Assembly (NCBI RefSeq): GCF_014203755.1
Contig: NZ_JACHJS010000001.1
Coordinates: 2,852,001 to 2,916,000 of the forward strand
DNA length: 64,000 nucleotides
Direction: 5' to 3'
From: Saccharothrix violaceirubra
Lineage (GTDB): Bacteria > Actinomycetota > Actinomycetes > Mycobacteriales > Pseudonocardiaceae
Shown here: positions 4,646-35,627 of the stretch, piece after piece
Layout of the letters: every line of letters starts with the position of its first letter
Position numbering within the stretch: the first letter of the stretch is position 1
The notes under the pieces: model-generated
The model's database searches: none
Seen by the model: only the letters and a program-made list of their open reading frames with translations
What the model was told of the DNA's origin: nothing
Made by a program: the position numbers and the translations under genes

Positions 4646-4683
4646 GCCCCTCGCGGGCCTGAACCGGAAAGGGGACCGCAGCC

Positions 4684-5719: not shown

Positions 5720-5722
5720 GCC

Positions 5723-8713: not shown

Positions 8714-8735
8714 GCCCCGACAGGAGCGCACCCGC

Positions 8736-9158
8736 ATGACCGACGTATTCGCCAGCACCGTCTTCTTCCGGCTCTCCGTGGCCGGCAACGACCTCGGCGC
8801 GTTCCACACCTGCCAGGGACTGGGCGCGCAGTTCGAGGTCGAGCAGTACGCGGAGGGCGGCAACAACGGGTTCACGTGGCAACTCCCCTCGCGGATCACG
8901 TGGTCCCCGGTCACCATGACCCGGCCCGTCACCGCCGACTCGGCCAAGGTCCTCAAGTGGTTCGGCGAGGTCGAGCGGCGGGCCGAGCGCAAGGACGGCG
9001 AGATCGTCGCGCTCGCACCGGACCTGACGCCGATCGTGCGGTGGCAGGTGTTGGGTGTGCTGCCGCTGCGCTGGCAGGGACCTTCGTTCGACCCCAGCGG
9101 GTCGCAGGCCGCCGTCGAGACGCTGGAGTTCTCGCACGAGGGCCTCGAAGCGTCCTGA
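8736..9158 (+). CDS. Second inner tube-fold protein (tube initiator-like)
   Basis: 140 residues with the phage tail tube pattern 'FRLSVAGNDLGAFHTCQGLGAQFEVEQYAEGG', then 'VTMTRPVTADSAKVLKWFGEVE' and the closing strand 'AAVETLEFSHEGLE'. It is clearly diverged from the tube protein at 4684. In PVC/AFP-like systems a diverged tube paralogue (Pvc5-like) links the tube to the hub. Position directly before the LysM hub gene agrees. ATG with AGGAG at 8722. Confidence 0.85.
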   Translation: MTDVFASTVFFRLSVAGNDLGAFHTCQGLGAQFEVEQYAEGGNNGFTWQLPSRITWSPVTMTRPVTADSAKVLKWFGEVERRAERKDGEIVALAPDLTPIVRWQVLGVLPLRWQGPSFDPSGSQAAVETLEFSHEGLEAS

Positions 9159-9179
9159 CGCGGGAAGGAGGACCACGTC

Positions 9180-9902
9180 GTGGCACGCCGACCCGGAGCG
9201 AGCCTGGTCAAGGCCCGCCTGGTGATCATGGAGCCGCCCGTCCGGGTGGGCGCGAAGCCGGGCGCCCGGTTGTCCACGGTCGCCTTCCAGTTCAACCCGG
9301 GCACGTTGGCGCTGGAGAAGTCCGTCGAGTGGCGCCGCCAGCCCGCCCGGATGGCCGGTCAGGCGTCGATGCCGGAGTTCGTCGGCAGCGGACCCCGCAC
9401 GCTGAGCGTGGACGTGTTCCTCGACGCCACCGCCACCCACGACAACTCGGTCGAGACCAGTGTGGAGAAGCTGATGGTGGCCTGCGTGCCCACGAGGAAG
9501 AGCATCGGCGCCCGCAAGCCCGCCAGCCCGTGGGTGCGCTTCGAGTGGGGTGCGGCCAAGTCCGTGTCGTTCGACGGCGTGCTGTCCGGTCTGTCGGTCG
9601 CCTACTCGCTGTTCGACGTGGACGGCAAGCCGTTGCGCGCCACGTGCTCGCTGTCGATCGAGGAGGCGGGCGTCGACACGCCCGGCCAGAACCCCACGTC
9701 GGGGTCGCGGGAGGCCCGGCGCGCGCACCGCGTGGTCGCCGGGGACAGCCTGCCGCAGTTGGCGTGGCGGGAGTACGGGGACCCGGCGGCGTGGCGGGTG
9801 ATCGCGCGGGCCAACGGCATCGACGACCCGCTGGCCCTGGTGCCCGGCACGGAACTGCTGCTGCCCGGCGTGGACGAGGTCGAACCCGAGGAGGCCCGAT
9901 GA
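9180..9902 (+). CDS. CIS tube/hub protein with C-terminal LysM (Pvc7-like)
   Basis: 240 residues. The N-terminal part has the 'FQFNPGTLALEKSVEW' motif typical of CIS tube-hub proteins; the C-terminal 50 residues form a LysM fold ('RVVAGDSLPQLAWREYGDPAAWRVIARANGI'). Homologues (gp53-like, Afp7/Pvc7) sit between tube and spike; the LysM is structural rather than a peptidoglycan sensor in most particles. GTG start; stop overlaps the spike gene ATG by 4 nt. Confidence 0.88.
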   Translation: MARRPGASLVKARLVIMEPPVRVGAKPGARLSTVAFQFNPGTLALEKSVEWRRQPARMAGQASMPEFVGSGPRTLSVDVFLDATATHDNSVETSVEKLMVACVPTRKSIGARKPASPWVRFEWGAAKSVSFDGVLSGLSVAYSLFDVDGKPLRATCSLSIEEAGVDTPGQNPTSGSREARRAHRVVAGDSLPQLAWREYGDPAAWRVIARANGIDDPLALVPGTELLLPGVDEVEPEEAR

Positions 9903-11575
9903 GCAACACCGCGCGGGGCGGACGCGCGTTCGCCGCGTCCCCGGTCGTCGTGGCGAACGGCCCGGTCGACGGCCCGTGGGACGACGAGCTGGTGAGCTGT
10001 GTCGTGGACGAGAACGTCGGCCTGCCCGACACGGCCGTGCTGACCTACCACGACGGCACCCGGGAGTTCCTGGCCAAGACCGGGATCACGATCGGCTCGC
10101 CGCTGCGGATCTCGGTGGCCTCCGCGCGCACCGGTCCGCCCGAGCCGCTGTTCGACGGCGAGGTCACGGCCGTGGAGATGGACGTGGACGGCACCGGCGC
10201 GTACACCGTGGTCCGGGCGATGAGCAAGGCGCACCGGCTGTTCCGGGGCCGCCGGGTCGAGGCGTTCCGGAACATGACGGCGTCCGCGATCGTCGCCAAA
10301 GTCGCGAAGAACGCCGGTCTCGCCGTCGGGAAGGTCGAGACCTCGCGGATCACCTACAAACACCTGAGCCAGCCCGGCATCTCGGACTGGGACTTCCTCC
10401 AGTCGTTGGCCCGCGAACACGGCGCGGTCGTGCGCGTGGACGCCCGGGGCCGGCTGGAGTTCACCAAGCTCACGCCCGCCGCCAAGGCCCCGGCGCCGTC
10501 GACCTCGGCCGACAAGAACCCGCTGGTGCTGGAGTTCGGCCGCAACCTGCTGGCGTTGCGGGCCGGGCTCAGCAGCGTCGAGCAGGCCAACGGCGTGGAG
10601 GTGCGCGGCTGGGACGTGGCCCGCAAGAAGCCTTTGGTGGCCGTGCGCAACAACACCAGAAGCAAGACCACCGACCCCGGTCTGTCCGCGTTGACCGCGA
10701 GCCGGGCGTTCCGCACCAAGAACCGGACGCTGGTGACCGACGTCCCGCACGCCACCCAGGCCGAGGCCACCGCCGCCGCCCAGTCGCTGGAGGCGTCGAT
10801 CAGCGCCGGGTTCGCCGAACTGGAGGCCGTCGCCGAGGGCAACCCCAAGCTGCGGGCGGGCGTGCCGATCGCGTTGGGCAACGTCGGCGACGCGTTCACC
10901 GGCCGCTACACGCCGACGGCCGTGACCCACGTGCTGGAACCGGACCGGGGCTACCGGACCACGGTCGTGGTCAGCGCGTCGCACGACCGTTCGCTGGCCG
11001 GACTCGCCGCGGGCGGTGTCCACGACCACCGCATGCCCGGCCTGGCGACGGGCGTCGTCACCGACATCCGCGAGGAAGGCGGCCAACGCGGCTGGGTCCG
11101 GCTCAAGTTCCCCTGGCTGGACGACAAGTACGTCACCGACTGGGTCCGCACGGTCCAGCTCGGCGGCGTGGGCGGCGGCGGGGTGTTCAGCCCGGACGTC
11201 AACGACGAGGTCCTGGTCGGGTTCGAACAGGGCAGCCTCGACCGGCCCTACGTGATCGGCGGCCTCTACAACGGCGTGGACAAGCCCTCGCCGCACGACA
11301 AGCCGCTCGTCGACCGGGCGAGCGGCAAGGTCAACCGGCGCTCTCTGGTGTCCCGCAAGGGACACCGGCTCGAACTGCTCGACGCGCCCGGCGCCTCGGG
11401 CGTGCGGCTGGCCAGCGGTGACGGCCGCCTGGAGGTGAAGGTCGACCAGAGCCGCGGCCGCGTGGAGCTGCGCGGTCCGGGCGGCGGTTCGGTGGTGCTC
11501 GACCGCACCGGCATCACGCTCGACGCGCGCAACGGCGTGGTCCAGGTCAAAGGTCGGCTGATCCGGCTCAACTGA
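9899..11575 (+). CDS. VgrG-like central spike (Pvc8-like)
   Basis: 558 residues. The N-terminal half is gp27-like ('LFDGEVTAVEMDVDGTGAYTVVRAMSKAHRLFRGRR', 'DWDFLQSLAREHGAVVRVD'). The middle is the gp5 OB fold ('LATGVVTDIREEGGQRGWVRLKFPWLDD', 'PDVNDEVLVGFEQGSLDRPYVIGGLYNG'). The end is the start of a beta-helix ('VELRGPGGGSVVLDRTGITLDARNG'). It forms the trimeric puncturing spike. No C-terminal effector extension is present. The ATG is coupled to the LysM gene stop. Confidence 0.92.
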   Translation: MSNTARGGRAFAASPVVVANGPVDGPWDDELVSCVVDENVGLPDTAVLTYHDGTREFLAKTGITIGSPLRISVASARTGPPEPLFDGEVTAVEMDVDGTGAYTVVRAMSKAHRLFRGRRVEAFRNMTASAIVAKVAKNAGLAVGKVETSRITYKHLSQPGISDWDFLQSLAREHGAVVRVDARGRLEFTKLTPAAKAPAPSTSADKNPLVLEFGRNLLALRAGLSSVEQANGVEVRGWDVARKKPLVAVRNNTRSKTTDPGLSALTASRAFRTKNRTLVTDVPHATQAEATAAAQSLEASISAGFAELEAVAEGNPKLRAGVPIALGNVGDAFTGRYTPTAVTHVLEPDRGYRTTVVVSASHDRSLAGLAAGGVHDHRMPGLATGVVTDIREEGGQRGWVRLKFPWLDDKYVTDWVRTVQLGGVGGGGVFSPDVNDEVLVGFEQGSLDRPYVIGGLYNGVDKPSPHDKPLVDRASGKVNRRSLVSRKGHRLELLDAPGASGVRLASGDGRLEVKVDQSRGRVELRGPGGGSVVLDRTGITLDARNGVVQVKGRLIRLN

Positions 11576-11588
11576 CAGGAGGTCCGAC

Positions 11589-11906
11589 ATGCCCAAGGCC
11601 GCCCGGGTGGGCGACAAGACGTCCCACGACGGCACGCTCGCGGTCCCGTCGCAGGCCGCGCTGGCGATGAAGATCGCCACCGTCCTGATCGAGGGCCGAC
11701 CGGCCGCCGTCATGGGCTGCGTGCACGTGTGCACCCAAGGCCCGCACATCCGGCTCGCCACGGCCAACGTGCTGCTGCCCCGGCCCGGACCACCGCCGAC
11801 CGTGTTCGTCGGCGGCGCTCCGGCGGCCGTGGTCGGCGACCGTTCGGTGTGTCAGGCGACCATCCGCTTCGGCGCGACCACGGTGGAGATCGGCGGTGGG
11901 CGGTGA
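11589..11906 (+). CDS. PAAR-like spike tip protein
   Basis: 105 residues with PAAR features: 'AARVGDKTSHDGTL', 'GRPAAVMGCVHVCT', 'GGAPAAVVGDRSVC', and regularly spaced His/Cys that can bind the tip metal. It caps the VgrG-like trimer. AGGAGG six nt before the ATG; stop overlaps the gp25 gene. No toxin domain is fused. Confidence 0.88.
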   Translation: MPKAARVGDKTSHDGTLAVPSQAALAMKIATVLIEGRPAAVMGCVHVCTQGPHIRLATANVLLPRPGPPPTVFVGGAPAAVVGDRSVCQATIRFGATTVEIGGGR

Positions 11907-12310
11907 ACGACTTCATCGGCCGCGGCTGGGGTTTCCCGCTGCGGGTCGACCCGACCGGCGGCATCGGCATGGTCGACCGGGACGTGGAGATCCAGCAGGC
12001 GATCCGGCTGATCCTGGCCACCGCGCCCGGCGAACGCCCGATGCGCCCCGAGTTCGGCTGCGGCATCCACGAGCACGTCTTCGCCACCGCCGACCACGCC
12101 ACGGCCGGCGACATCGCCCGCGAGGTGCGCGTCGCGCTCGACCGGTGGGAGCCGCGCATCGAGGTCGCCGACGTCGTGGTGGCCTTCGACGCGGTCGAGG
12201 TCGGCACGCTCTACATCGACGTGCACTACACCGTCCGCACCACCAACGACCGGCGCAACCTGGTGTTCCCCTTCTACACGATCCCCGCCGAGGAAGGAGG
12301 CGGTACCTGA
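11903..12310 (+). CDS. Baseplate wedge protein, GPW/gp25 family
   Basis: 135 residues with the gp25 hallmark 'IQQAIRLILATAPGERPMRPEFGCGIHEHVF' (shown in parts: the E-R-P...F-G core) and the closing 'TTNDRRNLVFPFY'. It joins the baseplate to the first sheath ring. GTG start within the PAAR stop (GTGA); stop and the next ATG share one base (TGATG). Confidence 0.9.
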   Translation: MNDFIGRGWGFPLRVDPTGGIGMVDRDVEIQQAIRLILATAPGERPMRPEFGCGIHEHVFATADHATAGDIAREVRVALDRWEPRIEVADVVVAFDAVEVGTLYIDVHYTVRTTNDRRNLVFPFYTIPAEEGGGT

Positions 12311-14232
12311 TGGTGCTGCCCGCACCGAACCTGGACGACCGGCGCTTCCAACAGCTCGTCGACGAGGCCAAGCGCTACGTCCAGCAGAGCTGTCCGGAGT
12401 GGACGGACCACAACGTGTCCGACCCCGGCGTCACGCTCATCGAGACGTTCGCGCACATGGTCGACCAGTTGGTCTACCGGCTCAACCGGGTGCCGGAGAA
12501 GAACCACCTGGCGTTCCTCGACCTGCTGGGCGTGCGGCTGTTCCCGCCCACGGCGGCACGCGCGGACGTCACGTTCTGGCTGTCCGCGCCGCAGCCGGAC
12601 ACCGTGCTGCTGCCGGTCGGGACCGAGGTCGCCACCGGCGGCGGCGACGCGGACGAGGCCGTGGTCTTCGCGACCTCGGCCGAGCTGCCGATCGTGCCGT
12701 CGTCGTTGACCAGGCTGGTCACGGTGTCCGCGCGCGGCGACCACGTGGACCGGACCAGGGACCTGGACTCGGGCCGGGACGTGCCGTGCTTCCAGGCCCG
12801 ACCGGAGGCCGGCGACGCCACCCTGTTCGGGCTGTCCGCGCCGGTGCCGCGCTGCGCCGTGGTGCTGCGCCTGGACAGCCGGGTGGAGGGCATCGGCGTC
12901 GACCCGCGGCAGCCGCCGCTGGTGTGGGAGGCGTGGGACGGGCACGACTGGGTCGCGTGCGCGGTCGACTCCGACGCCACCGGCGGTCTGAACCGGCCCG
13001 GCGAGGTGGTGCTGCACGTGCCGGCCGGGCACGCCGCGTCGGTGGTCGCGGGGCACCGGGCGGGCTGGCTGCGGTGCCGGGTCACGTCGCCCCTGGCCGA
13101 CCAGCCCTTCTACAGCGAGTCGCCGACCGTGCGCGAGGCCGAGGCGTTCACCATCGGCGGCACGACGACGGTGGAGCACGCCGAAGTGGAGACCGACGTG
13201 GTGCTGGGTGCTTCGGCGGGCGTGCCGGGGCAGCGGTTCCGCCTGCCGACCGCGCCCGTGCTGGTCGACGGGCCGCCGGTGGTGGTGCAGGTGTCGAACG
13301 GCGCGGGCTGGGACGACTGGACCGCGGTCGAGGACTTCGGCTCGTCCGGGCCCGACGACCGGCACGTGGTGCTGGACGCTGCCCTCGGCGAGATCTGGTT
13401 CCCGCCCGCCGTGCGCGAACCGGACGGGACGCTGCGGCGCTGCGGGGCCGTGCCCGCGAAGGGCGGGATGATCCGCGTGCCCCGATACCGGACCGGTGGC
13501 GGGCGTGCGGGCAACGTGGCGCGTGGCGCGATCTCGGTGCTGCGCAGCTCCGAGCCGTACGTGTCGACCGTGGAGAACCGCGAGGCCGCGTCCGGCGGCG
13601 TGGACGCGGAGACGGTCGACGAGGCGAAGGTGCGGGTACCGCACCAACTGCGGGTGTGGGACCGCGCCGTGACCGCCCGGGACCACGAGTTGATCGCGCA
13701 CCAGGCCGTGCCGTCGTTGGCCAGGGTGCGCTGCCTGCCGGAAGCGGGCGGCGCGCGGGTGCTGGTCGTGCCCGATGCCGTCGCCGACTCGGGCGACCGG
13801 CTGCGGTTCGAACAGCTCCTGCCGTCCGACGAGGTGCTCGCGGCCGTGGCGCGGCGGTTGGACGAGCGTCGCCTGTTGGGCACGCGCCTGGTCGTGGAAC
13901 CGCCGCGCTACCAGGGGATCACGGTGGTGGCCAGGCTGGTGGCGTCGTCGGGCCGCGTGCACGCCGAGGCGCTGGACGCGCTGTACCGGTACCTGAACCC
14001 GTTGCGCGGCGGGCTGGACGGCACCGGCTGGGATTTCGGCCGCGCGGTGGGCTACGGCGAGGTTTTCGCGGTGTTGCAACGGGTTCCGGGCGTGGCGTCG
14101 GTGGCGGAGGTCAGGATGTTCCCGGCCAACCCGCTCACCGGGGAACGGGGCGCGGCGACCGAACGGGTGGAGCTGGCGCCGAACGCGTTGGTGTTCTCGC
14201 AGCAGCACCAGATCGCGGTGGGCGCCCGATGA
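12310..14232 (+). CDS. Baseplate J-like assembly protein (Pvc11-like)
   Basis: 640 residues. The N-terminus has the family signature 'YVQQSCPEWTDHNVSDPGVTLIE' region followed by 'MVDQLVYRLNRVPEKN'. The C-terminal part has the gpJ-like block 'AGNVARGAISVLRSSEPYVSTVENREAASGG' region and 'LDALYRYLNPLRGGLDGTGWDFGRAV'. It forms the wedge arms of the baseplate. Length fits the actinobacterial 'putative baseplate assembly protein' family. Coupled at both ends to gp25 and gpI-like genes. Confidence 0.9.
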   Translation: MVLPAPNLDDRRFQQLVDEAKRYVQQSCPEWTDHNVSDPGVTLIETFAHMVDQLVYRLNRVPEKNHLAFLDLLGVRLFPPTAARADVTFWLSAPQPDTVLLPVGTEVATGGGDADEAVVFATSAELPIVPSSLTRLVTVSARGDHVDRTRDLDSGRDVPCFQARPEAGDATLFGLSAPVPRCAVVLRLDSRVEGIGVDPRQPPLVWEAWDGHDWVACAVDSDATGGLNRPGEVVLHVPAGHAASVVAGHRAGWLRCRVTSPLADQPFYSESPTVREAEAFTIGGTTTVEHAEVETDVVLGASAGVPGQRFRLPTAPVLVDGPPVVVQVSNGAGWDDWTAVEDFGSSGPDDRHVVLDAALGEIWFPPAVREPDGTLRRCGAVPAKGGMIRVPRYRTGGGRAGNVARGAISVLRSSEPYVSTVENREAASGGVDAETVDEAKVRVPHQLRVWDRAVTARDHELIAHQAVPSLARVRCLPEAGGARVLVVPDAVADSGDRLRFEQLLPSDEVLAAVARRLDERRLLGTRLVVEPPRYQGITVVARLVASSGRVHAEALDALYRYLNPLRGGLDGTGWDFGRAVGYGEVFAVLQRVPGVASVAEVRMFPANPLTGERGAATERVELAPNALVFSQQHQIAVGAR

Positions 14233-25593: not shown

Positions 25594-25663
25594 GGAATGC
25601 GAGTGTCGTGAGAGGTGGGGATCCGGTTCCGGGTGCGGTCTGTATGCGGTGTGGGGGTTCTGC

Positions 25664-26650
25664 GTGGACGTGCGTATTGCCGGTGTGGTCGAACCGGATC
25701 CATCTTCGAATACCTGCCAAGAGTCGGACGATCCGGACAGTCGATTCACACTCGTCACCCTGCCCGTCTGCGACCTGCTGCGCAGCGAATCTCCGCGCAC
25801 AGCCGGCGAGAGCGAGGAGCATGCGAAACTGCTCGCGGAGTCGCACGGAGAGCTGCCGCCTATTCTCGTGCATCGGGAGACGATGACGGTGATCGACGGA
25901 GCGCACCGGTTGCGGGCAGCCGAACTGCGAGGCGAGCGGATGATCCGTGCGCAACTCTTCGACGGCTCCGAGATCGACGCATTCGTGCTCGCGGTCGAGG
26001 CGAACACCACACACGGGTTGCCGCTGTCGCGAGCCGACCGCCTCGCCGCCGCCACGCGGATCATCGAATCGCGTCCCCAGTGGTCGGACCGTGCGGTAGC
26101 GCGGGTCGCGGGCATCTCGGCGCGGACGGTGGGGGTGATCAGGCGCCGGGCAAGTGCGGACCGTGCTCAGTTGCCTGCCCGCGTCGGGCGGGACGGGCGG
26201 ACGCGCCCGCTCAGCACCGCGGCCGGCCGCAGGATCGCCGCTGATCTGCTCAGGTCGAATCCCGGCGACTCGTTGCGGCGGATCGCCGCTGCCGCGGGCA
26301 TCTCGACGGGGACCGTGCGCGACGTGCGTGATCGGATCGACCGAGGTGAGGACCCGGTGCCGCCGAAGTCGCGACGGGCGGAGGAGCACGCGGTCGAGGT
26401 CATCGCGCCAAGGGTGGGCGATTCGCTGTCGATCGCGCGGAACTTGAGGATGGACCCGGCGTTGCGGTTCAGCGAGACCGGTAGGTCGCTGATCAGGCTC
26501 CTCGACGCGCACGTGCCGATCCTGGAGGACAGGGAAAGGCTCGCCACCAATGTGCCGCCACACGCTGCGGGAATGGTGGCGGAGTTGGCGCGCGGTTATG
26601 CGGAAATTTGGCAGAGATTCGCGCGCGAGGTAGAGCGGGGTGGCCGCTGA
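25664..26650 (+). CDS. StrR/ParB-like pathway regulator of the lasso cluster
   Basis: 328 residues. An N-terminal ParB/Sulfiredoxin-like domain ('FTLVTLPVCDLLRSE', 'HGELPPILVHRETMTVIDGAHRLRAAEL' in parts) is followed by two helix-turn-helix motifs ('DRAVARVAGISARTVGVI' and 'SLRRIAAAAGISTGTVRDV'). StrR-family activators with this build control antibiotic clusters (streptomycin, glycopeptides). It is the first gene of the lasso region, same strand. GTG at 25664 follows GGGGG by 7 nt; GTG codons at 25649 and 25670 are alternatives. The open frame extends to 25175 but lies upstream of the promoter. Confidence 0.75.
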   Translation: MDVRIAGVVEPDPSSNTCQESDDPDSRFTLVTLPVCDLLRSESPRTAGESEEHAKLLAESHGELPPILVHRETMTVIDGAHRLRAAELRGERMIRAQLFDGSEIDAFVLAVEANTTHGLPLSRADRLAAATRIIESRPQWSDRAVARVAGISARTVGVIRRRASADRAQLPARVGRDGRTRPLSTAAGRRIAADLLRSNPGDSLRRIAAAAGISTGTVRDVRDRIDRGEDPVPPKSRRAEEHAVEVIAPRVGDSLSIARNLRMDPALRFSETGRSLIRLLDAHVPILEDRERLATNVPPHAAGMVAELARGYAEIWQRFAREVERGGR

Positions 26651-26683
26651 ACTGCGGTACTCCGGTTACGATACGCTTGGCGG

Positions 26684-27220
26684 ATGTCAGTCGTTCGCAG
26701 GGTGCTGTCCGTGTTTCCAGGTCCGGTACAGGCGCTCGCGCTCAAGCACCGCGAGGTGCTGAAATTCCTGTTCGTCGGTGGTGCGAGTTTCCTCGTCACC
26801 TCGGCTTTGAACTACACGCTGAAGTTCACCGTCCTGAAAGCGAAACCCGTCACCGCGCTGGTCGTCGCCACCATCGTCGCCACGATCGTTTCGTACATCC
26901 TGAATCGGGAATGGTCCTTCAGCACCAGGGGTGGTCGCGAGCGTCATCATGAAGCCGCGTTGTTCTTCCTCATCAGCGGTGTCGGTGTGGCATTGAACTC
27001 GGTCCCCTACGCCCTTTCGCGGTATGTGCTGCAGCTTCAGGTCCCGCACGTGGGCCTGCTGGCGCAGGAAATTGCCGACTTCGTCAGCGGCATGGTCGTG
27101 GGTACGCTGATCGCCTCGATCTTCCGATTTTGGGCGTTCCGCCGCTGGGTATTCCCGGTGGAGGGGGCGCGTGTACCCCGGAAGGAGTACGGGCAGGAAG
27201 GCGTCGATCGGGCCGCGTAA
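26684..27220 (+). CDS. GtrA-like membrane protein
   Basis: 178 residues with four membrane helices: 'EVLKFLFVGGASFLVTSALNY', 'ALVVATIVATIVSYILNR', 'ALFFLISGVGVALNSVPYAL' and a fourth ending 'GTLIASIFRFWAFRRWVF', the last being the typical GtrA end. GtrA proteins usually help move lipid-linked sugars across the membrane. It lies between the regulator and the lasso precursor on the same strand. Whether it serves the lasso pathway (export or immunity) is unknown. A possible -10 (TACGAT, 26667) sits only 12 nt before the ATG. Confidence 0.8.
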   Translation: MSVVRRVLSVFPGPVQALALKHREVLKFLFVGGASFLVTSALNYTLKFTVLKAKPVTALVVATIVATIVSYILNREWSFSTRGGRERHHEAALFFLISGVGVALNSVPYALSRYVLQLQVPHVGLLAQEIADFVSGMVVGTLIASIFRFWAFRRWVFPVEGARVPRKEYGQEGVDRAA

Positions 27221-27249
27221 AATTCGGCGGACAAATTCTGTGCAACACA

Positions 27250-27278
27250 TTGGAGCTTCGCGAGTCTCTCGCTAGATT
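27250..27278 (+). promoter_or_regulatory. Promoter of the lasso peptide operon
   Basis: TTGGAG (27250-27255), 17-nt spacer, TAGATT (27273-27278). The spacer contains the small inverted repeat GCGAG-tct-CTCGC (27260-27272), centred between the two boxes, a fitting place for an operator. The precursor ATG is 58 nt beyond the -10, leaving a 5' leader of about 50 nt. Assigned by eye; no start-site data. Confidence 0.6.
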
Positions 27279-27335
27279 TGTCCGTGCGGGGAGGAAAATC
27301 CCTTCCGGCATGTCGATATCGGTGGGAGAAACGCT

Positions 27336-27458
27336 ATGGAAGAGATCAAGCCGGGTGAGTACGAGCAGCCGTTGATGGTCGAGATCGGTGACTTCGCCGA
27401 GCTGACCAACGGCATCGGCAGCCAGAACCCGTGGGACACCGCCTGGCTGTGGGACTGA
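27336..27458 (+). CDS. Lasso peptide precursor, core GIGSQNPWDTAWLWD
   Basis: 40 residues, too short for routine gene calling. The 25-residue leader has the RRE-binding YxxP motif (YEQP, residues 9-12), the 'L..EIGDF..LT' pattern, and Thr at -2 (LTN before the core). The core (residues 26-40) has Gly1 and Asp9, which fits a nine-residue Gly1-Asp9 macrolactam with six-residue tail TAWLWD. Three of 15 core residues are Trp (8, 12, 14). GGGAG lies 7 nt before the ATG. Computed monoisotopic mass of the cyclised unmodified core: about 1726.77 Da. Confidence 0.93.
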   Translation: MEEIKPGEYEQPLMVEIGDFAELTNGIGSQNPWDTAWLWD

Positions 27459-27468
27459 GAGACAAGTA

Positions 27469-29283
27469 GTGCTCCAGTCCCACGCTGACGGCGGCGAGAG
27501 CGCGTTCATCGTCCTTCCGGACGCTGACGGCGCTCTCGCCGCTCGTCCTCGACGATGCGGGGCGGAGGTGTTGCTCACCCATCCGTCCGGCCGCCCGTTG
27601 CTCGTGGGCGTCCTCCACGATGATGACCTTCGGACCTTCCGCAGCAGACATGGTGTCGTCGCGCTGGTCGGCTTCTGCCCCTTGGCCGGCGCTCGATTGG
27701 AAAGCCTGCTGCGTGACATCACCGATGTTCGACAGTTGGACCGGGTAGTCGGTGCACTGCCCGGCAGCCACCACGTGATCGCCTCGCTCGAAGGCGAGGT
27801 GCGCGCTCAGGGAACGATCTCCAACACGCGGCGGATGTTCGTGGGTGGGGATGTCGCCGCGAACCGGGCAGACCTCGTCGCCGAGCTGGTCGACGCCGGT
27901 GTGGACGAGGAGGCCGTCGCACTGCGGCTGCTGTTCCCGTCGGTTCCCCACCCCCTCACCTCGTCGACGATGTGGCGCGAGGTCGCCGCGGTTCCCCCCG
28001 GCCACTACGCCGCTCCGGGCAGCACGCCGGACGTGGTGCGCTGGTGGACGCCACCGACTCCCCACCTTGCGCTCGCCGAGGGGGCGGAGCGGTTGCGGGA
28101 CGCACTGACCTCGGCCGTCGCCGACAACGCCAGGTCCAGGCCGTCGATCAGTTGCGACCTGTCCGGCGGCATGGACTCCACTCCCGTCGGGTATCTCGCC
28201 TGGCAGCACAACCCCGACCTGCTCGCGGTCACCATGACGGAACTGACCAGCGATGACGACGACACCGGGATCGCCGTCGACGCCGCGGCGCGGATGCCGG
28301 GCGTCGAGCACCTCCTGATGCCCGCGAGCGGACTGCCGTTGCCGTTCGAGGGGCTGTTCGACCCCGACCAGCCTCACGACGAACCGTTCCTGGGCCTGCA
28401 GGGGGCACGGTTTCGGGAAGTCGCCCGCCGGGTGCGGGCACACGGTTCGACTTTGCACTTCACCGGCCACGGTGGAGACGAGGTCCTGTCCGCGCCACCG
28501 AATTACCTGCATGGCCTCGCGCGGCGCGATCCGTGGCTCGCGCTCGACCACGTACGTGGTCATCGCGGGCTCAAGCGCTGGACGGTGAGTCAGACCTGGC
28601 ACGCGCTGCGGGACAACCAGTCCTATCGGGACTGGCTCGAGCGGAGCGCACGGGAGATCACCTCACCATTGCCCGGCGGACGGCTGCCGCCCGCGAGCTG
28701 GAACCACCCCTTGAGGCTGTCACCGTGGCTCACCCAGGACGGCGTCCATCTCGTGTCGGAGGCGCTCGGCACGGCCGCGGTGGGCGCCGAGCCGCTGGCG
28801 GAAGACCGAAGCGGGCATCTCGCGCTCGAACAGATCAGGGCTTCCGGCCGAGTCGCTCGGCTGATCGGGCAGCTCACCGCCACCCAAGGCGTGCGAACGG
28901 TGACACCATTCCTCGACGACCGGGTGGTCGAGGCGTGCCTGTCCGTGCTGCCGCACGAACGCAGTACTCCCTGGGCCTTCAAACCGCTGCTCACCGCGGC
29001 GTTGCGCGACGTCGTGCCCGCGGACATCGTGCGGCGGTCGACCAAGAACGACATGTCGGAGGACGTGCACGCGGGGTTGCGCGCCCAGCGATCGAGGATC
29101 GCGGCGCTGTGTGACGACCTGCTGTTGGCCCGGCTCGGGCTGGTCGACGCCGAGGCGTTGCGGCTGGCAGTTCTCGGCCCGCCACCGCCCGGACCGGCGT
29201 TGCCGATCATGGTGATGACCTTCAACTGCGAGATGTGGCTGCGCGGCGCCACCTCTTTGTCGACGAGGAGTGGGAGCGGATGA
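27469..29283 (+). CDS. Lasso cyclase (asparagine synthetase homologue, C protein)
   Basis: 604 residues. N-terminal degenerate glutaminase-like domain without a Cys2 nucleophile ('LLVGVLHDDDLRTF'), then the ATP-pyrophosphatase domain with PP-loop SGGMDS at residues 232-237, 'HFTGHGGDEVL' and C-terminal 'TPFLDDRVVEACLSVLP..RSTPWAFKPLL'. It adenylates the Asp9 side chain of the core and forms the isopeptide bond to Gly1. GTG start 10 nt after the precursor stop. The stop overlaps the B2 gene ATG (ATGA). Confidence 0.92.
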   Translation: MLQSHADGGESAFIVLPDADGALAARPRRCGAEVLLTHPSGRPLLVGVLHDDDLRTFRSRHGVVALVGFCPLAGARLESLLRDITDVRQLDRVVGALPGSHHVIASLEGEVRAQGTISNTRRMFVGGDVAANRADLVAELVDAGVDEEAVALRLLFPSVPHPLTSSTMWREVAAVPPGHYAAPGSTPDVVRWWTPPTPHLALAEGAERLRDALTSAVADNARSRPSISCDLSGGMDSTPVGYLAWQHNPDLLAVTMTELTSDDDDTGIAVDAAARMPGVEHLLMPASGLPLPFEGLFDPDQPHDEPFLGLQGARFREVARRVRAHGSTLHFTGHGGDEVLSAPPNYLHGLARRDPWLALDHVRGHRGLKRWTVSQTWHALRDNQSYRDWLERSAREITSPLPGGRLPPASWNHPLRLSPWLTQDGVHLVSEALGTAAVGAEPLAEDRSGHLALEQIRASGRVARLIGQLTATQGVRTVTPFLDDRVVEACLSVLPHERSTPWAFKPLLTAALRDVVPADIVRRSTKNDMSEDVHAGLRAQRSRIAALCDDLLLARLGLVDAEALRLAVLGPPPPGPALPIMVMTFNCEMWLRGATSLSTRSGSG

Positions 29284-29705
29284 AAGCCAGGGCGACGGCA
29301 CTCGTCAAGCCGGCGGGAAACACGTTCAGCGGCCTTCCCGCCGCGTTCTCCGTATTGGTGGCCAAAGTGCTCGGCAGGCAGTCTCCGCACCGCATTCGTC
29401 GCGTGCTCACCGCGGTGTCCCGGGGTGCTCGTCCCGCGACACTCGCCGAGGCGGAAGCGGCACACCGGGCGGTGCTCGGCAGCAGCGTGATGATGGCGGG
29501 CGACGGGTGCCTGCCGAGGTCGATCGCCGTCGCCTTGCTGTGCAGGCTGCGCGGCAGGTGGCCGACCTGGCACGTGGGTGCGCAGATCCATCCGTTCCGC
29601 GCGCACTCGTGGGTGGTGGCGGAGGGTGTGGCGGTGGGGGAGACCGGTGACATGAGCCGGTGGAAGTCGTTGATCACGGTCGGCTCGCAGGGAGATCCCC
29701 GATGA
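29280..29705 (+). CDS. Lasso leader peptidase (B2, transglutaminase-like)
   Basis: 141 residues. Cys77 in DGCLPRSIAVALL and His109 in 'FRAHSWVV' are the expected catalytic pair. The position that usually gives Asp ('HAWVEVDG' in homologues) reads VVAEG, so a Glu may stand in. The enzyme cuts the leader after Asn25 once B1 has presented the precursor. ATG chosen at the ATGA overlap with the cyclase; the frame is open further up but inside the cyclase gene. Confidence 0.9.
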   Translation: MKARATALVKPAGNTFSGLPAAFSVLVAKVLGRQSPHRIRRVLTAVSRGARPATLAEAEAAHRAVLGSSVMMAGDGCLPRSIAVALLCRLRGRWPTWHVGAQIHPFRAHSWVVAEGVAVGETGDMSRWKSLITVGSQGDPR

Positions 29706-29959
29706 CGTTGCGCCCACGTGCACAGGTGACGATGACCCGCGCCGACGACGGCATGGTCGTGTTGGACGAGCGGACGGGCCGCTACTGGCAGCTCAACCAC
29801 AGCGCCGCGTACATGCTGGAGCGCTTGGTGGACGGGGACACCGTCGACCAGGTCGCCGAACACGTCGCCGCGAGTGCGGGTGTCGACACGGCCGACGTGC
29901 GGTCCGACGTCGACGCGTTCATCGGCCGCCTGCGCCACGCCGGCCTCATTGCCGAATGA
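29702..29959 (+). CDS. Lasso RiPP recognition element (B1, PqqD-like)
   Basis: 85 residues with the PqqD/RRE winged-helix fold: 'DGMVVLDERTGRYWQLNHSAAYMLERLVDGDTVDQVAEHVA' seen in segments, ending 'FIGRLRHAGLIAE'. It binds the YxxP part of the leader and delivers it to B2 and the cyclase. The gene follows B2, whereas C-B1-B2 is the more usual order in actinobacteria. ATGA overlap at both ends. Confidence 0.92.
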   Translation: MTLRPRAQVTMTRADDGMVVLDERTGRYWQLNHSAAYMLERLVDGDTVDQVAEHVAASAGVDTADVRSDVDAFIGRLRHAGLIAE

Positions 29960-31716
29960 CGACTTCTCAAGGGGGGAACGTGGAGACGAACGCCGGACGG
30001 CGGTCGGAGTTGGATGAACTGGTGTCGACATTCCCGGACGACGAGGCCGCCGCGGTTCGCGGATGGCTCGGCGGCGCTGCGGGCACGTCGCACCTGCCGG
30101 GGATCTCTTTGCGCAGCAATCACGAGCCGCTCGTGGAGAAGCTGCCCAGGCCCGCCGCGTACGACCCGAATGCGATACGTCGCGTCGCCATCGTCGGAGG
30201 CGGCACGGCAGGCTACCTCACCGCGATTGCTCTGCGTACCAAGCGACCGTGGCTCGAGGTGTCGCTGGTCGAGTCACCGTCGATCCCGATCATCGGCGTC
30301 GGTGAGGCGACCGTGCCCGGCATCGTGATCTTCCTGCACCACTACCTCGGCATCGACGTCGAGGACTTCTACCGACAGGTTCGGCCGACCTGGAAACAGG
30401 GCATCCATTTCCGGTGGGGACCTCGGCCGGAGGGGTTCATGGCCCCGTTCGACTGGGACAGCAATTCGATCGGCACGGCAGGGGCGGTCGACTCCGGCAG
30501 CGGTATCGACGGATACACGCTGCAGTCGTTGTTGATGAGGACGGACCGCACGCCGGTGTTCGACGCCGGCGGCGAACAGGTTTCGCTGATGAAGTACCTG
30601 CCGTTCGCCTACCACCTCGACAACGCGCGCTTCGTCGGCTTCCTGACCGACATCGCCAAGCAGCGCGGCGTGCGGCACGTCGAAGCGCGAATCGAGGACG
30701 TGGTCCTCGGCGGTGAGGACTGGGTCGACCACCTGCGCACCACCGACGGGCGCAAACTCGACTACGACTTGTACGTGGACTGCTCGGGTTTTCGGTCGAT
30801 TCTGCTCGGCAAGGCTTTCGGGACGCCGTTTCTGAGCTACGAGAGCAGCCTGTTCACCGACTCGGCCGTCACCGGCAACGTCGGCCACGGCGGGCACCTG
30901 AAGTCCTACACCAGTTCGATCACGATGGACTCCGGCTGGTGTTGGGGCATTCCGACGCCGGAAGATGACCACTTGGGCTACGTGTACTCGTCGAACGCGA
31001 TCTCCGACGACAAGGCTGCCGAGGAACTCGCAGCGCGGTTCCCGGGCGTCGGCGACCCCCGTGTGGTCCGGTTTCGCGTCGGCAGGTACGAGAAGGCGTG
31101 GCGCGGCAACGTGATGGCGATCGGCAATGCCTACGCGTTCGTCGAACCACTCGAGTCGACCGGCATCCTCATGATCACTTCCAGCGTGCAGGCGTTGGTC
31201 GCCTCCTTGCCGGCGTCGTGGTCGGATCCGCAGTGCCGTGACATGATCAACGTTGCTCTCGCGAACAGGTGGGACGCGCTGCGGTGGTTCCTGTCCATCC
31301 ACTACAGGTTCAACACCAGGCTCGACACGCCGTTCTGGCGGGAAGTCCGTTCCACGACCGACATATCCGGTGCGCAACCGATGCTGGACATGTACGCGAC
31401 CGGTGCGCCGCTGCGATATCGCAATCCCTTGCTCAGGACGTTTCTGCAAGGAAACACACCGACGTTCTACGGGCTGGCCGGAGTGGAGACGATCCTGCTC
31501 GGACAGGAGGTGCCGACACGGCTGCTGCACCGTGCGGAGCCGCCCGAACGGTGGCGCGCACGCCGGGACGCCGCCATGGCGATCACCCGGCGCGCATTAC
31601 CCCAGAACGAGGCGTTGGCGCGGTTCCACGACAATCCGGGCTTGAACCGGCAGCTTCTCTTCGACCCGGACAGTTGGGCGAGCCCGTTGCGTGCCGAGCC
31701 GATCGGAATGCTGTGA
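29956..31716 (+). CDS. Flavin-dependent tryptophan halogenase acting on the lasso pathway
   Basis: 586 residues. FADH2-binding GGGTAGYLTA starts at residue 81; 'GVGEATVPGI' follows; Lys147 in TWKQGIHF corresponds to the chloramine-forming lysine; WCWGIP at 328 is the WxWxIP halogenase signature; Glu400 in 'EPLESTGI' corresponds to the active-site Glu. All key residues are present, so it should be active. Substrate is inferred to be one or more Trp of the lasso core or precursor, because the gene is coupled by 4 nt to B1 and the core has three Trp. An N-terminal 60-residue extension precedes the FAD fold. A TTA codon lies at 31597-31599. Confidence 0.92.
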   Translation: MTTSQGGNVETNAGRRSELDELVSTFPDDEAAAVRGWLGGAAGTSHLPGISLRSNHEPLVEKLPRPAAYDPNAIRRVAIVGGGTAGYLTAIALRTKRPWLEVSLVESPSIPIIGVGEATVPGIVIFLHHYLGIDVEDFYRQVRPTWKQGIHFRWGPRPEGFMAPFDWDSNSIGTAGAVDSGSGIDGYTLQSLLMRTDRTPVFDAGGEQVSLMKYLPFAYHLDNARFVGFLTDIAKQRGVRHVEARIEDVVLGGEDWVDHLRTTDGRKLDYDLYVDCSGFRSILLGKAFGTPFLSYESSLFTDSAVTGNVGHGGHLKSYTSSITMDSGWCWGIPTPEDDHLGYVYSSNAISDDKAAEELAARFPGVGDPRVVRFRVGRYEKAWRGNVMAIGNAYAFVEPLESTGILMITSSVQALVASLPASWSDPQCRDMINVALANRWDALRWFLSIHYRFNTRLDTPFWREVRSTTDISGAQPMLDMYATGAPLRYRNPLLRTFLQGNTPTFYGLAGVETILLGQEVPTRLLHRAEPPERWRARRDAAMAITRRALPQNEALARFHDNPGLNRQLLFDPDSWASPLRAEPIGML

Positions 31717-32210
31717 CGGACGAGGCGCTCCGGACGGTGTTCCGTTCGTTCATGGCGGGGTTTCCGACCGGAGTCGCCGTCGTCACCGCCGTCGACGCCG
31801 ACGGGACGCCACATGGGATGACGTGTTCGTCCCTGTGCAGCGTCACACTCCTTCCACCGACGCTGGCGGTGTGCCTGCGCAGAGGCAGCCCGACACTCGC
31901 GGCTATACAGCGCCGCAACTTCTTCGTGGTGAACCTGATGCACGACGAGGCACGGATCACCGCGGAGCTGTTCGCCTCCGGGGAGGCCGACAGGTTCGAC
32001 CGGGTGCGCTGGCAGGCTGGAGCCGCCGGGCCGCACCTGCCCGACGACGCGCACGCGATCGCGGATTGCTCGGTGCGCCGGACCGAGCCGGTGGGAGACC
32101 ACGAGGTGGTGTTCGGAGAGGTACTGGGAGCAGGCGTATCCGAGATGCCCAAACCACTGCTCTATGGCATGCGCCGCTACGCCAGGCTGTGGACGGAAGC
32201 CGGGCGGTGA
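31713..32210 (+). CDS. Flavin reductase partner of the halogenase
   Basis: 165 residues of the flavin reductase-like (split-barrel) family: 'FMAGFPTGVAVVTAVDADGTPHGMTCSSLCSVTLLPPTLAVCL' in parts, 'FFVVNLMHDE', 'HEVVFGEVLG'. It supplies FADH2 to the halogenase from NAD(P)H. The GTG overlaps the halogenase stop (GTGA), so both are made together. This is the last gene of the lasso operon; a weak hairpin (CCACCT/AGGTGG, 32223-32243) follows. Confidence 0.9.
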   Translation: MTDEALRTVFRSFMAGFPTGVAVVTAVDADGTPHGMTCSSLCSVTLLPPTLAVCLRRGSPTLAAIQRRNFFVVNLMHDEARITAELFASGEADRFDRVRWQAGAAGPHLPDDAHAIADCSVRRTEPVGDHEVVFGEVLGAGVSEMPKPLLYGMRRYARLWTEAGR

Positions 32211-32237
32211 ACGGTCTCGAAGCCACCTGCGGGGGCG

Positions 32238-32392
32238 AGGTGGTCAGGGCCGGGAGCACCATGATCTCGCCGTCGTGGTAATCGTGTAACGAACCCTGGC
32301 TCGGCCACGCTGCCGACCACCGCTCGACCTGTTCGGAAGTCGACGGAGGAGGCGTCGATCTGCCACCCACCCGAGTCCTCCTTGTATCCCAT
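32238..32392 (-). pseudogene. Internally deleted, frameshifted copy of the 37061-37978 membrane protein gene
   Basis: Read on the minus strand, the start (ATG at 32392) gives 'GWQIDAS' like 'RWRIDAP' of the intact gene. After one extra base the next frame gives 'PPSTSEQVERWSAAWPSQG', matching 'PPLTSTQAERWSAAWPNQG'. Near 32285-32292 the sequence jumps to 'HDYHDGEIMVLPAL', matching the C-terminal 'HADHDGEITVPPAL' of the intact gene. So about 250 residues, including all membrane helices, are gone. Clear pseudogene. Confidence 0.8.
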
Positions 32393-32896
32393 GCCCACAA
32401 ACCGCCGGCATGCCGGGTCCCTGTTGTCGAACAACGGTTCCCGGCTCGCGGGAACGAGCCGCCGTGCGCCTCCAGGTGCGGCCGGGCCACCGAGGTCTGC
32501 GGCGGGTGGTCGAGGGTCCGGCCGGCCATCCGCCCCCGTGCGATCGACGACAGCAGGGCGTGCCCACGGCTTCGGGCCGCGATCGCGCGATCCTGGTCGC
32601 ATGATCACGAGCGGCGGGGTCCGCTTCGCTTCTCCCGGATCGGCGACGTCCGATTATCCGCGCCCGGTACCGTGAGTCACGGGGCGTGTGCGGGGCGGGG
32701 GTGGCGTGGTGTCCGCCGAGGCAGTGGGGGATCAGCCGGAAGTGGCCGAGTTGCTGCGTGCGGTCCGCGCGGAGATCGACGCGACTCTCGGCGCGGAGAC
32801 CGGGTTCGACAAGGTGGTCCTCACCGAAGGTCGGGTCGTGGGCGGTGGGGGCGACCGGCACGAGTACTCGTTCGCCGCCCGGGGCTGGAAGGACTC
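32286..32896 (+). repeat. Direct repeat copy 1 (divergent promoter region plus helicase 5' end)
   Basis: This stretch is repeated in the same orientation at 37876-38606. Shared blocks include the 5' end of the membrane gene, the intergenic block around 32455-32560 (matching 38242-38345 with about 10% differences), and the first about 190 nt of the helicase gene. Copy 1 has about 85 nt before the helicase start that copy 2 lacks; copy 2 has about 200 nt inserted after its membrane gene start. Confidence 0.85.
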
Positions 32897-35627
32897 GTCC
32901 GCCGCCCGGCCGCTGCTGATTCGTGCCCGCCCGCGTACCGCCTGGGAGTCGGCGGAACTCGTCGTCGCCGAACGCGGTCGGTTGCGCCTGCGCACGTCCG
33001 CCGTGCTGGGTGCGAAGGCCGAACTCCGCGAGGACGACACGTCCGGCCTGGTCGCGTTGGCCGAACAGCTCGACCGGACGATCTCGGGGGCCGGCGGGTT
33101 GAACCTGACCGCGGCCGGGTGGCTGGTCGGCCGCGACCTGCCCGCGGCCGGTCGGTGCCCGCACCCGGAGCGGTACGTGCGCGGGTGGCGGTCCTTGCAG
33201 CTCAACGACCGGCAGCGCGATGCCGTGGCACGGGCCCTGGGCAGCGACCTGACCTTCGTCTGGGGGCCGCCCGGCACCGGCAAGACCGAGGTCGTCGGCC
33301 ACGTCGTGGAGGGCAACCACCGGCAGGGGCACCGGGTGCTGTTCCTCGCGCCCACCAACGTCGCCGTGGACCAGGCGGTGGAACGGCTGTGCGAGCTGTT
33401 GAGCGCCGAGGACGGCTTCGCCGGCGGGCTCGTGCAGCGGGCCGGGGACATCGCACCCGGTTCGCTCAAGGAGAAGTACGGCGACCGGATCGAGCAGCGG
33501 AAGATCGTGGCGCGGCTGAGCGCCGGCCTGACCGCCGAGATCGGGGAGTTGCGCGAGCGCCTCGACGTCGTCGACAGCCGCTTGGCACTGCACCGCGAGC
33601 ACGCGGAACTCCTCGGAAGTCTCGAACAACTGCGTGGCGACGCTCGGCGGGCCACGCGGGACGTCGCCACGGCCGCGGCCGAGTGCGAGCGCGCCAGGCA
33701 GGAGGCAGCCCGGCTGCGTGCCGAACTGATCGCGATCGGAGTCCCGACCGGCCCGTCCGCCGCGCGGAAGGCGCGACAGCAGGAAGAACTCCTCTCCCGA
33801 CTCCAGGTGGTCGACCAGGACGTCGCCGACCTGGTCGCGCGGCACCTGCTCGCCACCGCCGAACAGCGGCGCCACGCGGCGCGAGTACAGGCAGCCGAGC
33901 GCAAGGCGAGCGCACTCCGGACGACACTGGTCGGCAGCGCCGACCAACTCGCCACCACGGCCAAGAATCTGCGGGAACGTCTGGAAGACCGGCAGGACAA
34001 GCTCCGCGCCGTCGAAGTGGAGGTGCGTGGCAACTGCCGTGTCCTGGCGACGACCGTGGCCAAGGCCGTGCAGTCCCGGTACCTGATCGACAGGTTCGAC
34101 ACCGTCGTCCTCGACGAAGCGGGCATGGTCGCCCTTCCCGCGGCCTGGTACGCGGCGGCGTTGGCGAGGAAACGGGTGGTCGTGGCCGGCGACTTCCGGC
34201 AGCTCCCCGCGGTGACCCGGGCGTCCGGCGATCACGACGCGGACCCGGCGACGCGGGCGCACTCCGCGCACTGGATGGACCGCGACGCCTTCCACGCGGC
34301 CGGCCTCGTCGACGGTCGGGGACGCGTGCGACCCCACGGCTGCCTGATCGGTCTGGACACCCAGTACCGCATGCGTCCGGCGATCTGCGCGGTCGTGAAC
34401 ACGATCGCCTACCCCGACGCGCCGTTGACCACCGGCCGGGCGGACGGCAGCCGGTTGCCGCCGTCGCCGCTGCTGGAGTCGCCGCTGGTGCTGGTCGACA
34501 CCGCGACCCGGCGCTCGGCCGCACAAGGCGGTCCCAGATCCAACCCGGTGCACGAGGCCGTGATCCACGAACTCGTCCGGGGACTGCAGTACGACGGTGT
34601 GCTGCCCGCGCGCAAGGAGGACGGCGGGCCGGGCGACCGGATGGCGGTCATCGCCCCCTACCGCGACCAGGTCGGGGCGCTGAAGGGCAGTCTCGCCTAC
34701 CGGTTCGGCGCCGACTACGACGGTGTCGTCGACACCGTGCACCGGTTCCAGGGCAGCCAACGACCCCTCGTGGTGATCGACACCGTCGCCGGTGCCGGTG
34801 ACCGGGTCGGCCGCTTCTACGAGGGAACGGGCCTGTCGTCGGCCACCTGCCGACTGCTCAACGTGGCGGTGAGCCGCGCGCAGGACCACCTCGTGGTGGT
34901 CGCCGACGTCGACTTCCTGAGCCGCAACCTCAAGCCCCACGGCGAAGCCGCCCGCCTGGTCGACCACCTGCGGCGGCACGCGCACCACCTCGACGTCGGC
35001 GACCTCGTCCCGTTCCGCGCGGCGGACGACCTGGCGGGACTCGACCCGCACGAGCTGACCCGACCGGCCTTCTTCCCGGCCGACGAGGTGCCGCGCGCCG
35101 TCGCCTGGGACTTCGCGCACGCCCGACGCGGCATCGACATCTACTGCGCGTTCCTCGACGCCGACCCCGTCGAACGGTGGCTCGCGAAGCTGACACCGCG
35201 GATCGAGGACGGTCTGACCGTCACCGTCCACACCCGACCGGCCCGGCGATCCGACGACGAACGGCAGATCGCGAGGCTCGAGGCGGCCGGGTGCACCGTG
35301 GTCCGACGCGAGCGCATGCACGAGAAGGTCGTGATCGTCGACGACGAGGTGCTCTGGCACGGGTCGCTCAACCTGCTGGCCCGCACCGGGCCCACCGACC
35401 TCATGATGCGCATCACCGATCCCGGTGCCTGCGAACGCGTGCGCCGGATCGTCGAGCGCGCCCGTGCCGAGCCCGGACCGAAAGCCGGCGGCCGGTTGTA
35501 CCTGAACGTGCCGTTCGCGGAGAACGACCTGGCCAGGCAGACCGCGAAAGCCCGATGGGATCCCAAGTCCAGGCGTTGGTACGTGCCGCACGACACGCCT
35601 CGACACCTTGTGGAGCGGTGGTTGTAG
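32709..35627 (+). CDS. SF1 helicase - PLD nuclease - DUF5710 fusion (Mokosh II-like)
   Basis: 972 residues. N-terminal about 150 residues: small beta domain of unknown type. Then a COG1112-type SF1 helicase: Walker A GPPGTGKTE at about 186, a long coiled-coil insertion (about 260-430), 'VVLDEAGMVALP', 'VAGDFRQLPAV', 'DTVHRFQGSQRPLVVIDTV' and 'LLNVAVSRAQDHLVVV'. Next a PLD domain with one HKD motif (HEKVVIVDD at about 871, then 'GSLNLL'), and a C-terminal DUF5710 ('YLNVPFAENDLA.QTAKARWDPKSRRWYVP'). Helicase plus PLD in one chain is the layout of type II Mokosh anti-phage proteins. GTG at 32709 is favoured since the duplicated copy starts at the same codon. Confidence 0.87.
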   Translation: MSAEAVGDQPEVAELLRAVRAEIDATLGAETGFDKVVLTEGRVVGGGGDRHEYSFAARGWKDSSAARPLLIRARPRTAWESAELVVAERGRLRLRTSAVLGAKAELREDDTSGLVALAEQLDRTISGAGGLNLTAAGWLVGRDLPAAGRCPHPERYVRGWRSLQLNDRQRDAVARALGSDLTFVWGPPGTGKTEVVGHVVEGNHRQGHRVLFLAPTNVAVDQAVERLCELLSAEDGFAGGLVQRAGDIAPGSLKEKYGDRIEQRKIVARLSAGLTAEIGELRERLDVVDSRLALHREHAELLGSLEQLRGDARRATRDVATAAAECERARQEAARLRAELIAIGVPTGPSAARKARQQEELLSRLQVVDQDVADLVARHLLATAEQRRHAARVQAAERKASALRTTLVGSADQLATTAKNLRERLEDRQDKLRAVEVEVRGNCRVLATTVAKAVQSRYLIDRFDTVVLDEAGMVALPAAWYAAALARKRVVVAGDFRQLPAVTRASGDHDADPATRAHSAHWMDRDAFHAAGLVDGRGRVRPHGCLIGLDTQYRMRPAICAVVNTIAYPDAPLTTGRADGSRLPPSPLLESPLVLVDTATRRSAAQGGPRSNPVHEAVIHELVRGLQYDGVLPARKEDGGPGDRMAVIAPYRDQVGALKGSLAYRFGADYDGVVDTVHRFQGSQRPLVVIDTVAGAGDRVGRFYEGTGLSSATCRLLNVAVSRAQDHLVVVADVDFLSRNLKPHGEAARLVDHLRRHAHHLDVGDLVPFRAADDLAGLDPHELTRPAFFPADEVPRAVAWDFAHARRGIDIYCAFLDADPVERWLAKLTPRIEDGLTVTVHTRPARRSDDERQIARLEAAGCTVVRRERMHEKVVIVDDEVLWHGSLNLLARTGPTDLMMRITDPGACERVRRIVERARAEPGPKAGGRLYLNVPFAENDLARQTAKARWDPKSRRWYVPHDTPRHLVERWL

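What the first reader, a model, noticed from the sequence alone, without database searches (positions are those of the whole stretch)
27336..32210. Lasso peptide cluster with a built-in tryptophan halogenase and flavin reductase
A 40-residue precursor, cyclase, B2, B1, a complete Trp halogenase (GGGTAG, WCWGIP, Lys147, Glu400) and its reductase form one operon. The core has three Trp in 15 residues. From family knowledge, one chlorinated-Trp lasso peptide (reported as chlorolassin) is known, so the chemistry has a precedent, but such clusters are rare. This core and its halogenation pattern may be new.
Basis: partly seen in the sequence, partly recalled or inferred. Interest (0 to 1): 0.93.

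Follow-up and report, generated by a model that had tools for sequence, protein, structure and literature searches.

The report
Second chlorolassin lasso-peptide gene cluster
This is a real gene cluster for a chlorinated, knot-like peptide, but the peptide it encodes is letter for letter that of chlorolassin, already isolated from another bacterium, so it is a second likely producer rather than a new molecule.

Summary
In detail: at 27336-32210 lie a lasso precursor, cyclase, B2, B1, a flavin-dependent Trp halogenase and a flavin reductase, tightly spaced on one strand. The hoped-for novelty is not. The core GIGSQNPWDTAWLWD is identical (15 of 15) to that of Lentzea jiangxiensis, the chlorolassin producer; the precursor is 38 of 40, the halogenase 85%, and DNA 81% identical over 5.8 kb. 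Chlorolassin and its halogenase ChlH are published (PMC12518702: 5-chloro Trp8 and Trp12, Trp14 bare). The likely product is therefore chlorolassin. Two things go beyond the finding. First, the conserved block is larger: a helix-turn-helix regulator and a GtrA-type membrane protein sit directly upstream in the window, L. jiangxiensis and G009. Second, G009, of the same genus, carries regulator-GtrA-A-C-B2-B1 with core GIGSQTWDTAWLWD but no halogenase or reductase in the 19.9 kb fetched, so halogenation looks like an add-on module. GtrA as self-protection or export is a guess worth testing. The halogenase start is better placed at GTG 29980, making the catalytic Lys 139, as in ChlH.

The parts
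25685..26650 (+). DNA-binding regulator (ParB/StrR-like by eye, recalled; no family model names it so; start uncertain, in-frame GTG codons at 25649-25685)
   Evidence: PF13384 HTH_23, 29.1 bits vs cut-off 24.6; homologue in the same place in L. jiangxiensis, 76%, and in G009, 49%; 33 bases from gtrA
26684..27220 (+). GtrA-family membrane protein, a copy additional to the chromosome's tandem gtrA pair
   Evidence: PF04138, 69.4 bits vs 26.1, but NCBIfam gtrA_1 below cut-off, 23 vs 50; 80% and 66% identical genes directly upstream of the precursor in L. jiangxiensis and G009; extra copy; tree
27336..27458 (+). lasso precursor peptide; leader 1-25, core 26-40 = GIGSQNPWDTAWLWD, predicted Gly1-Asp9 macrolactam
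   Evidence: NF033521 leader model; 38 of 40 identical and core 15 of 15 identical to L. jiangxiensis, L002 7355-7474
27469..29283 (+). lasso peptide cyclase, asparagine-synthase type
   Evidence: PF00733; 84% identical to the L. jiangxiensis cyclase
29280..29705 (+). B2 leader peptidase (transglutaminase-like)
   Evidence: NF033537, PF13471, 79% identity
29702..29959 (+). B1 / PqqD-type leader recognition element
   Evidence: NF033530, PF05402, 79% identity
29980..31716 (+).
   Evidence: PF04820, 386 bits; 85% identical to the L. jiangxiensis halogenase; nearest solved structure 5uao, E 1.3e-219
31713..32210 (+). ChlR-type flavin reductase
   Evidence: PF01613, 126 bits; 76% identical to the L. 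jiangxiensis gene

Best explanation
The locus is a second chlorolassin biosynthetic cluster. Inferred path: the reductase supplies FADH2 to the halogenase, which chlorinates the linear precursor at C5 of Trp12 and then Trp8 while Trp14 stays essentially bare; B1 holds the leader, B2 cuts after Asn(-1), and the cyclase joins Gly1 to Asp9 around the tail, giving a dichlorinated lasso peptide of about 1794.70 Da. Shown here: gene content, order, identical core, conserved catalytic motifs. Taken from the published ChlH work: site, order and timing of chlorination. From general knowledge of lasso enzymes: roles of B1, B2 and cyclase. Inferred: that this strain expresses the genes and makes the same product. 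The upstream regulator and GtrA protein are probably part of the locus.
For: Core 15 of 15 identical, precursor 38 of 40, cyclase 84%, B2 79%, B1 79%, halogenase 85%, reductase 76% identical to L. jiangxiensis, same order; one blastn match of 5800 columns at 81.5%. The core positions named in the ChlH paper (Ile2, Pro7, 8-WDTAWLWD-15, Asn-1) and its expected m/z 1920 for the fMet-I2K core peptide agree with this core (1919.84). Ka/Ks against L. jiangxiensis is 0.08-0.37 in the seven genes compared. ChlH chlorinates linear ChlA at Trp8 and Trp12, not the threaded peptide (PMC12518702: abstract, passages and Discussion seen).
Against: No expression or mass data for this strain. The halogenase differs from the L. 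jiangxiensis one at about 15% of residues (for example WCWGIP here, WCWDIP there), so site choice could differ. The curated lasso-cyclase models match only below their cut-offs. Core constancy rests on 15 codons with 1 synonymous and 0 other changes, too few for a strong test of selection on the core alone.
Confidence: 0.93

Rival explanations
1. A new halogenated lasso peptide with its own core and halogenation pattern.
For: The 15-residue core string itself is in none of the held papers, and this halogenase is only 85% identical to the known one, so the pattern could still differ.
Against: The core is identical to that of the chlorolassin producer and the enzymes are 76-85% identical.
Confidence: 0.03
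2. A decayed or silent version: the cluster makes only des-chlorolassin because the halogenase is inactive or not expressed.
For: Des- and monochlorolassin occur beside chlorolassin in the known producer (PMC12518702 Discussion); a relative without halogenase exists.
Against: Halogenase and reductase frames are intact, catalytic Lys and motifs are kept, and Ka/Ks is 0.14 and 0.31.
Confidence: 0.04
3. The regulator and gtrA upstream are chance chromosomal neighbours, not part of the locus (a rival to that part of the reading only).
For: GtrA proteins of the same subgroup occur in 4 other genus genomes (G022, G002, G013, G012) with no match to the window's lasso proteins in the 19 kb fetched around each; the cluster copies are not resolved as a clade of their own. 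The ChlH paper's text does not mention GtrA (figures not held).
Against: Both genes keep order and strand in 3 of 3 loci (window, L. jiangxiensis, G009), while none of the 7 flanking window proteins tried matched in the other two. Of 17 other cyclase matches in the genus, 13 were fetched with about 1.5 kb on each side (12 of them with B1 and B2), and 0 of 13 show gtrA.
Confidence: 0.4

Closest known systems
Chlorolassin cluster of Lentzea jiangxiensis CGMCC 4.6609, NZ_FNIX01000010.1
   Same: Identical 15-residue core, same gene order A-C-B2-B1-H-R, 76-95% protein identity, same upstream regulator and gtrA
   Different: Other genus and other surroundings; two leader substitutions (E8G, E22D); about 15% halogenase divergence
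MibH, NAI-107 (microbisporicin) Trp 5-halogenase, PDB 5uao
   Same: Nearest solved structure; a Microbispora corallina Trp 5-halogenase, P0092, is 59% identical; the paper gives ChlH-MibH as 58%
   Different: Acts on the already cyclised lanthipeptide, not on a linear precursor (PMC12518702 passage)
G009 cluster (its cyclase shares 556 residues with the 557-residue Saccharothrix longispora P0135)
   Same: Regulator, gtrA, precursor with core GIGSQTWDTAWLWD, cyclase 61%, B2, B1 in the same order
   Different: 14-residue core with predicted 8-residue ring; no halogenase or reductase match in 19.9 kb; the genome's only halogenase-family matches are far off and 38% identical or less over the main stretch

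Membership tests
Chlorolassin biosynthetic clusters | Precursor core GIGSQNPWDTAWLWD | tested here: met
   15 of 15 identical to L002
Chlorolassin biosynthetic clusters | Cyclase, B2, B1, ChlH-type halogenase and ChlR-type reductase side by side | tested here: met
Chlorolassin biosynthetic clusters | Product 5-chlorinated at Trp8 and Trp12, threaded | not testable with these tools
   needs LC-MS/MS or NMR; published for L. jiangxiensis
Lasso peptides of the Gly1 / Asp type | Leader with YxxP and Thr(-2), Gly1, acceptor Asp at 8 or 9 (rule recalled) | tested here: met
   YEQP, T-N|G, Asp9 in the sequence; NF033521 above cut-off
Lasso peptides of the Gly1 / Asp type | Cyclase reaches an NCBIfam lasso-cyclase cut-off | tested here: not met
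   NF033561 241.5 vs 300, NF033535 70 vs 525. A limit of these models rather than a defining trait: the cyclase is 84% identical to that of the chlorolassin producer
Flavin-dependent Trp halogenases | GxGxxG FAD motif, WxWxIP, catalytic Lys and Glu (motifs recalled) | tested here: met
   PF04820; motifs and residues

The most novel reading that the evidence does not exclude
The chlorolassin locus is a modular unit of regulator, GtrA, precursor and lasso enzymes, in which the halogenase-reductase pair is an optional insert and the cluster-linked GtrA (family presumed to flip polyprenyl-linked sugars; recalled), an extra copy beside the cell's own pair, protects the producer or exports the peptide, which would point to envelope sugar-lipid transport as the peptide's target.
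Probability: 0.2. Interest if true: 0.55.

Novelty: already known. Interest (0 to 1): 0.25.

Why it matters
It gives a second natural halogenase-reductase pair (85% and 76% identical to the known one) facing an identical core, useful for mapping which halogenase residues matter, and a natural relative (G009) with the same tail WDTAWLWD but no halogenase in the cluster. It also points to two upstream genes that the ChlH paper's text, as far as searched, does not name (GtrA), as candidates for control, export or self-protection. It does not give a new molecule.

Tried and rejected
New core: rejected by direct comparison. Halogenase on plasmids: 96 records match, all under 60% identity; the one place covering at least 80% of the query is 43.7% identical (10 of 96 rows listed). 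Other close halogenases as lasso enzymes: in the family search 6 of 390 genomes match at E<=1e-150 (best 3 candidates per genome scored); around the 4 that are neither G000 nor G240, 16-17 kb each held no match to precursor, B1 or B2, and only weak asparagine-synthase hits in two. Those halogenases beside LanC: LANC_like occurs in 4 of 5 genomes tested, never in the fetched stretches of G218, G243 and G247, and in the genome of L003 on another contig (C56) than the halogenase (C387). Precursor relatives among 5.8 billion proteins: 2 hits at E<=1, itself and P0128; a 40-residue query has little reach. Cyclase in an even class-wide sample: 1 of 394 at E<=1e-130, itself.

Is the window's own cluster in print: not found in paper searches, but the discovery paper (doi 10.1021/acs.biochem.4c00035) is not held and the second ChlH paper (doi 10.1021/acs.jnatprod.4c01199) was seen only as a citation and in a review's sentence.

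Gain or loss of the halogenase: the cyclase tree puts window, L. jiangxiensis, Lentzea sp. DG1S-22 and one metagenome row in one clade (100/100), next to G009, S. longispora and an Actinosynnema (92/97, not starred), but gene context is known for three of them only, so direction is open. By eye, no longest-contig length of the ten 54-61% cyclases P0132-P0141 recurs among the 120 halogenases listed; weak, as only the longest contig is printed. A halogenase acting from elsewhere in G009 is not excluded: it has halogenase-family stretches at 1.26 and 3.79 Mb (E 5.6e-50 and 2.4e-51, 38% identity) and a faint one at 5.09 Mb, none near its cluster at 1.49 Mb. Promoter and terminator scan: nothing usable, counts near shuffles. 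Structure prediction was not run.

Full report
Observation. Six genes lie head to tail at 27336-32210 with gaps of 10, -4, -4, 20 and -4 bases. Their families are a lasso leader peptide, an asparagine-synthase-type cyclase, B2, B1, Trp halogenase and flavin reductase. Two notes: the halogenase most likely begins at GTG 29980, behind AGGGGGG, giving 578 residues and Lys139, the number used for ChlH; and NCBIfam's lasso-cyclase models match only below cut-off.

Identity with a known system. The one scan of genome contigs returned 18 loci that encode a relative of the halogenase; the best, at 85%, is Lentzea jiangxiensis CGMCC 4.6609. There the precursor is 38 of 40 identical and the core 15 of 15; the cyclase is 84%, B2 79%, B1 79%, halogenase 85%, reductase 76% and upstream GtrA 80% identical, and the DNA matches at 81.5% in one block, window 26428-32189 of the 26400-33200 compared. 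L. jiangxiensis is the chlorolassin producer. The ChlH paper (PMC12518702: outline, abstract, passages and Discussion seen) reports 5-chlorination of Trp8 and Trp12, Trp12 first, on the linear precursor, with Trp14 only slowly touched in vitro, and names core positions that fit this core. Its expected m/z of 1920 for the fMet-I2K core fits 1919.84 computed from the window core. A review (PMC12615548, passage seen) says dichlorination raised antibacterial activity.

Constraint. Against L. jiangxiensis, Ka/Ks is 0.08 for the precursor, 0.12 gtrA, 0.17 cyclase, 0.22 B2, 0.37 B1, 0.14 halogenase and 0.31 reductase. The core shows 1 synonymous and no other change in 15 codons, the leader 4 and 2; the numbers are small.

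Frequency. Halogenase matches at E<=1e-150 occur in 6 of 390 family genomes and cyclase matches at E<=1e-140 in 3 of 390; both in 2 of 390, the window's genome and G240 (best 3 candidates per genome scored). G240's contig has the length of the L. jiangxiensis contig, 228180 bases, so it is very probably that species. A class-wide sample gave 1 of 394, the window's own. Among proteins, Lentzea sp. DG1S-22 has a cyclase 589 of 603 identical to that of L. jiangxiensis; its halogenase could not be checked.

Wider locus. A regulator with a helix-turn-helix (PF13384) and a GtrA membrane protein (PF04138; NCBIfam gtrA_1 only below cut-off) precede the precursor in window, L. jiangxiensis and G009, 3 of 3. 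All 25 genus genomes have GtrA matches at E<=1e-10, 22 of them as an adjacent pair elsewhere (G002, G011 and G013 show no pair); in G000 and G009 the cluster copy is additional. In a nine-row tree the three cluster copies and four extra copies from other genus genomes separate from the window genome's own pair (95/96), window and L. jiangxiensis group at 100/100, and the place of G009's copy is unresolved. The four extra copies have no match to the window's lasso proteins in the 19 kb around each, so this GtrA subgroup is not confined to such clusters. Of 17 other cyclase matches in the genus 13 were fetched, and none of the 13 shows gtrA within about 1.5 kb. I read this as probable membership of the locus; the function is a guess. 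No ABC transporter was among the genes of the block.

Halogen-free sister. G009, in the same genus, has regulator 49%, GtrA 66%, precursor 78%, cyclase 61%, B2 62% and B1 49% identical, and no halogenase or reductase match in 19.9 kb. Elsewhere its genome has halogenase-family stretches 38% identical at 1.26 and 3.79 Mb and a faint one at 5.09 Mb, against the cluster at 1.49 Mb, so none is a close ChlH relative or a neighbour, though action at a distance is not excluded. Its core is GIGSQTWDTAWLWD, as in metagenomic P0128. Its cyclase shares 556 residues with the 557-residue S. longispora protein. The scaffold and all three Trp are thus kept without a halogenase pair in the cluster.

Verdict. 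A real, intact cluster, correctly described, whose predicted product is the already characterised chlorolassin.

Noticed in passing
L003 1410-4765 and 9965-12276 (Streptosporangiaceae MAG JASHQL010000540.1): A 59% identical halogenase and 61% reductase lie about 7 kb from a P450 and two tandem small peptides ending MLEWTAIKEW and MLAWTAIKEW, with a regulator like the window's (45%) beside them: possibly a different, P450-type RiPP with peptide Trp halogenation.
   Followed up: partly
L028 1304-1405, L029 1316-1417, L030 1288-1389 (same genus): Trp-rich lasso precursor-like stretches reading ...LTNRGYWLDGPWGAWWF next to cyclase, B1 and B2; no halogenase match in these short loci.
   Followed up: no
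window 3131-14232: Translations resemble tail-sheath and tube-like proteins of a contractile injection system (read by eye; no family search made).
   Followed up: no
window 32688-35627: Large helicase-like protein with AAA_11/AAA_12, a PLD-like stretch just below cut-off and DUF5710, downstream of the cluster and without a match in the L. jiangxiensis and G009 stretches.
   Followed up: no
window 25700-32210: G+C is 67.1% in the locus against 71.4% for the window, and the flanks tried differ between the three genomes, which fits transfer as a unit.
   Followed up: partly
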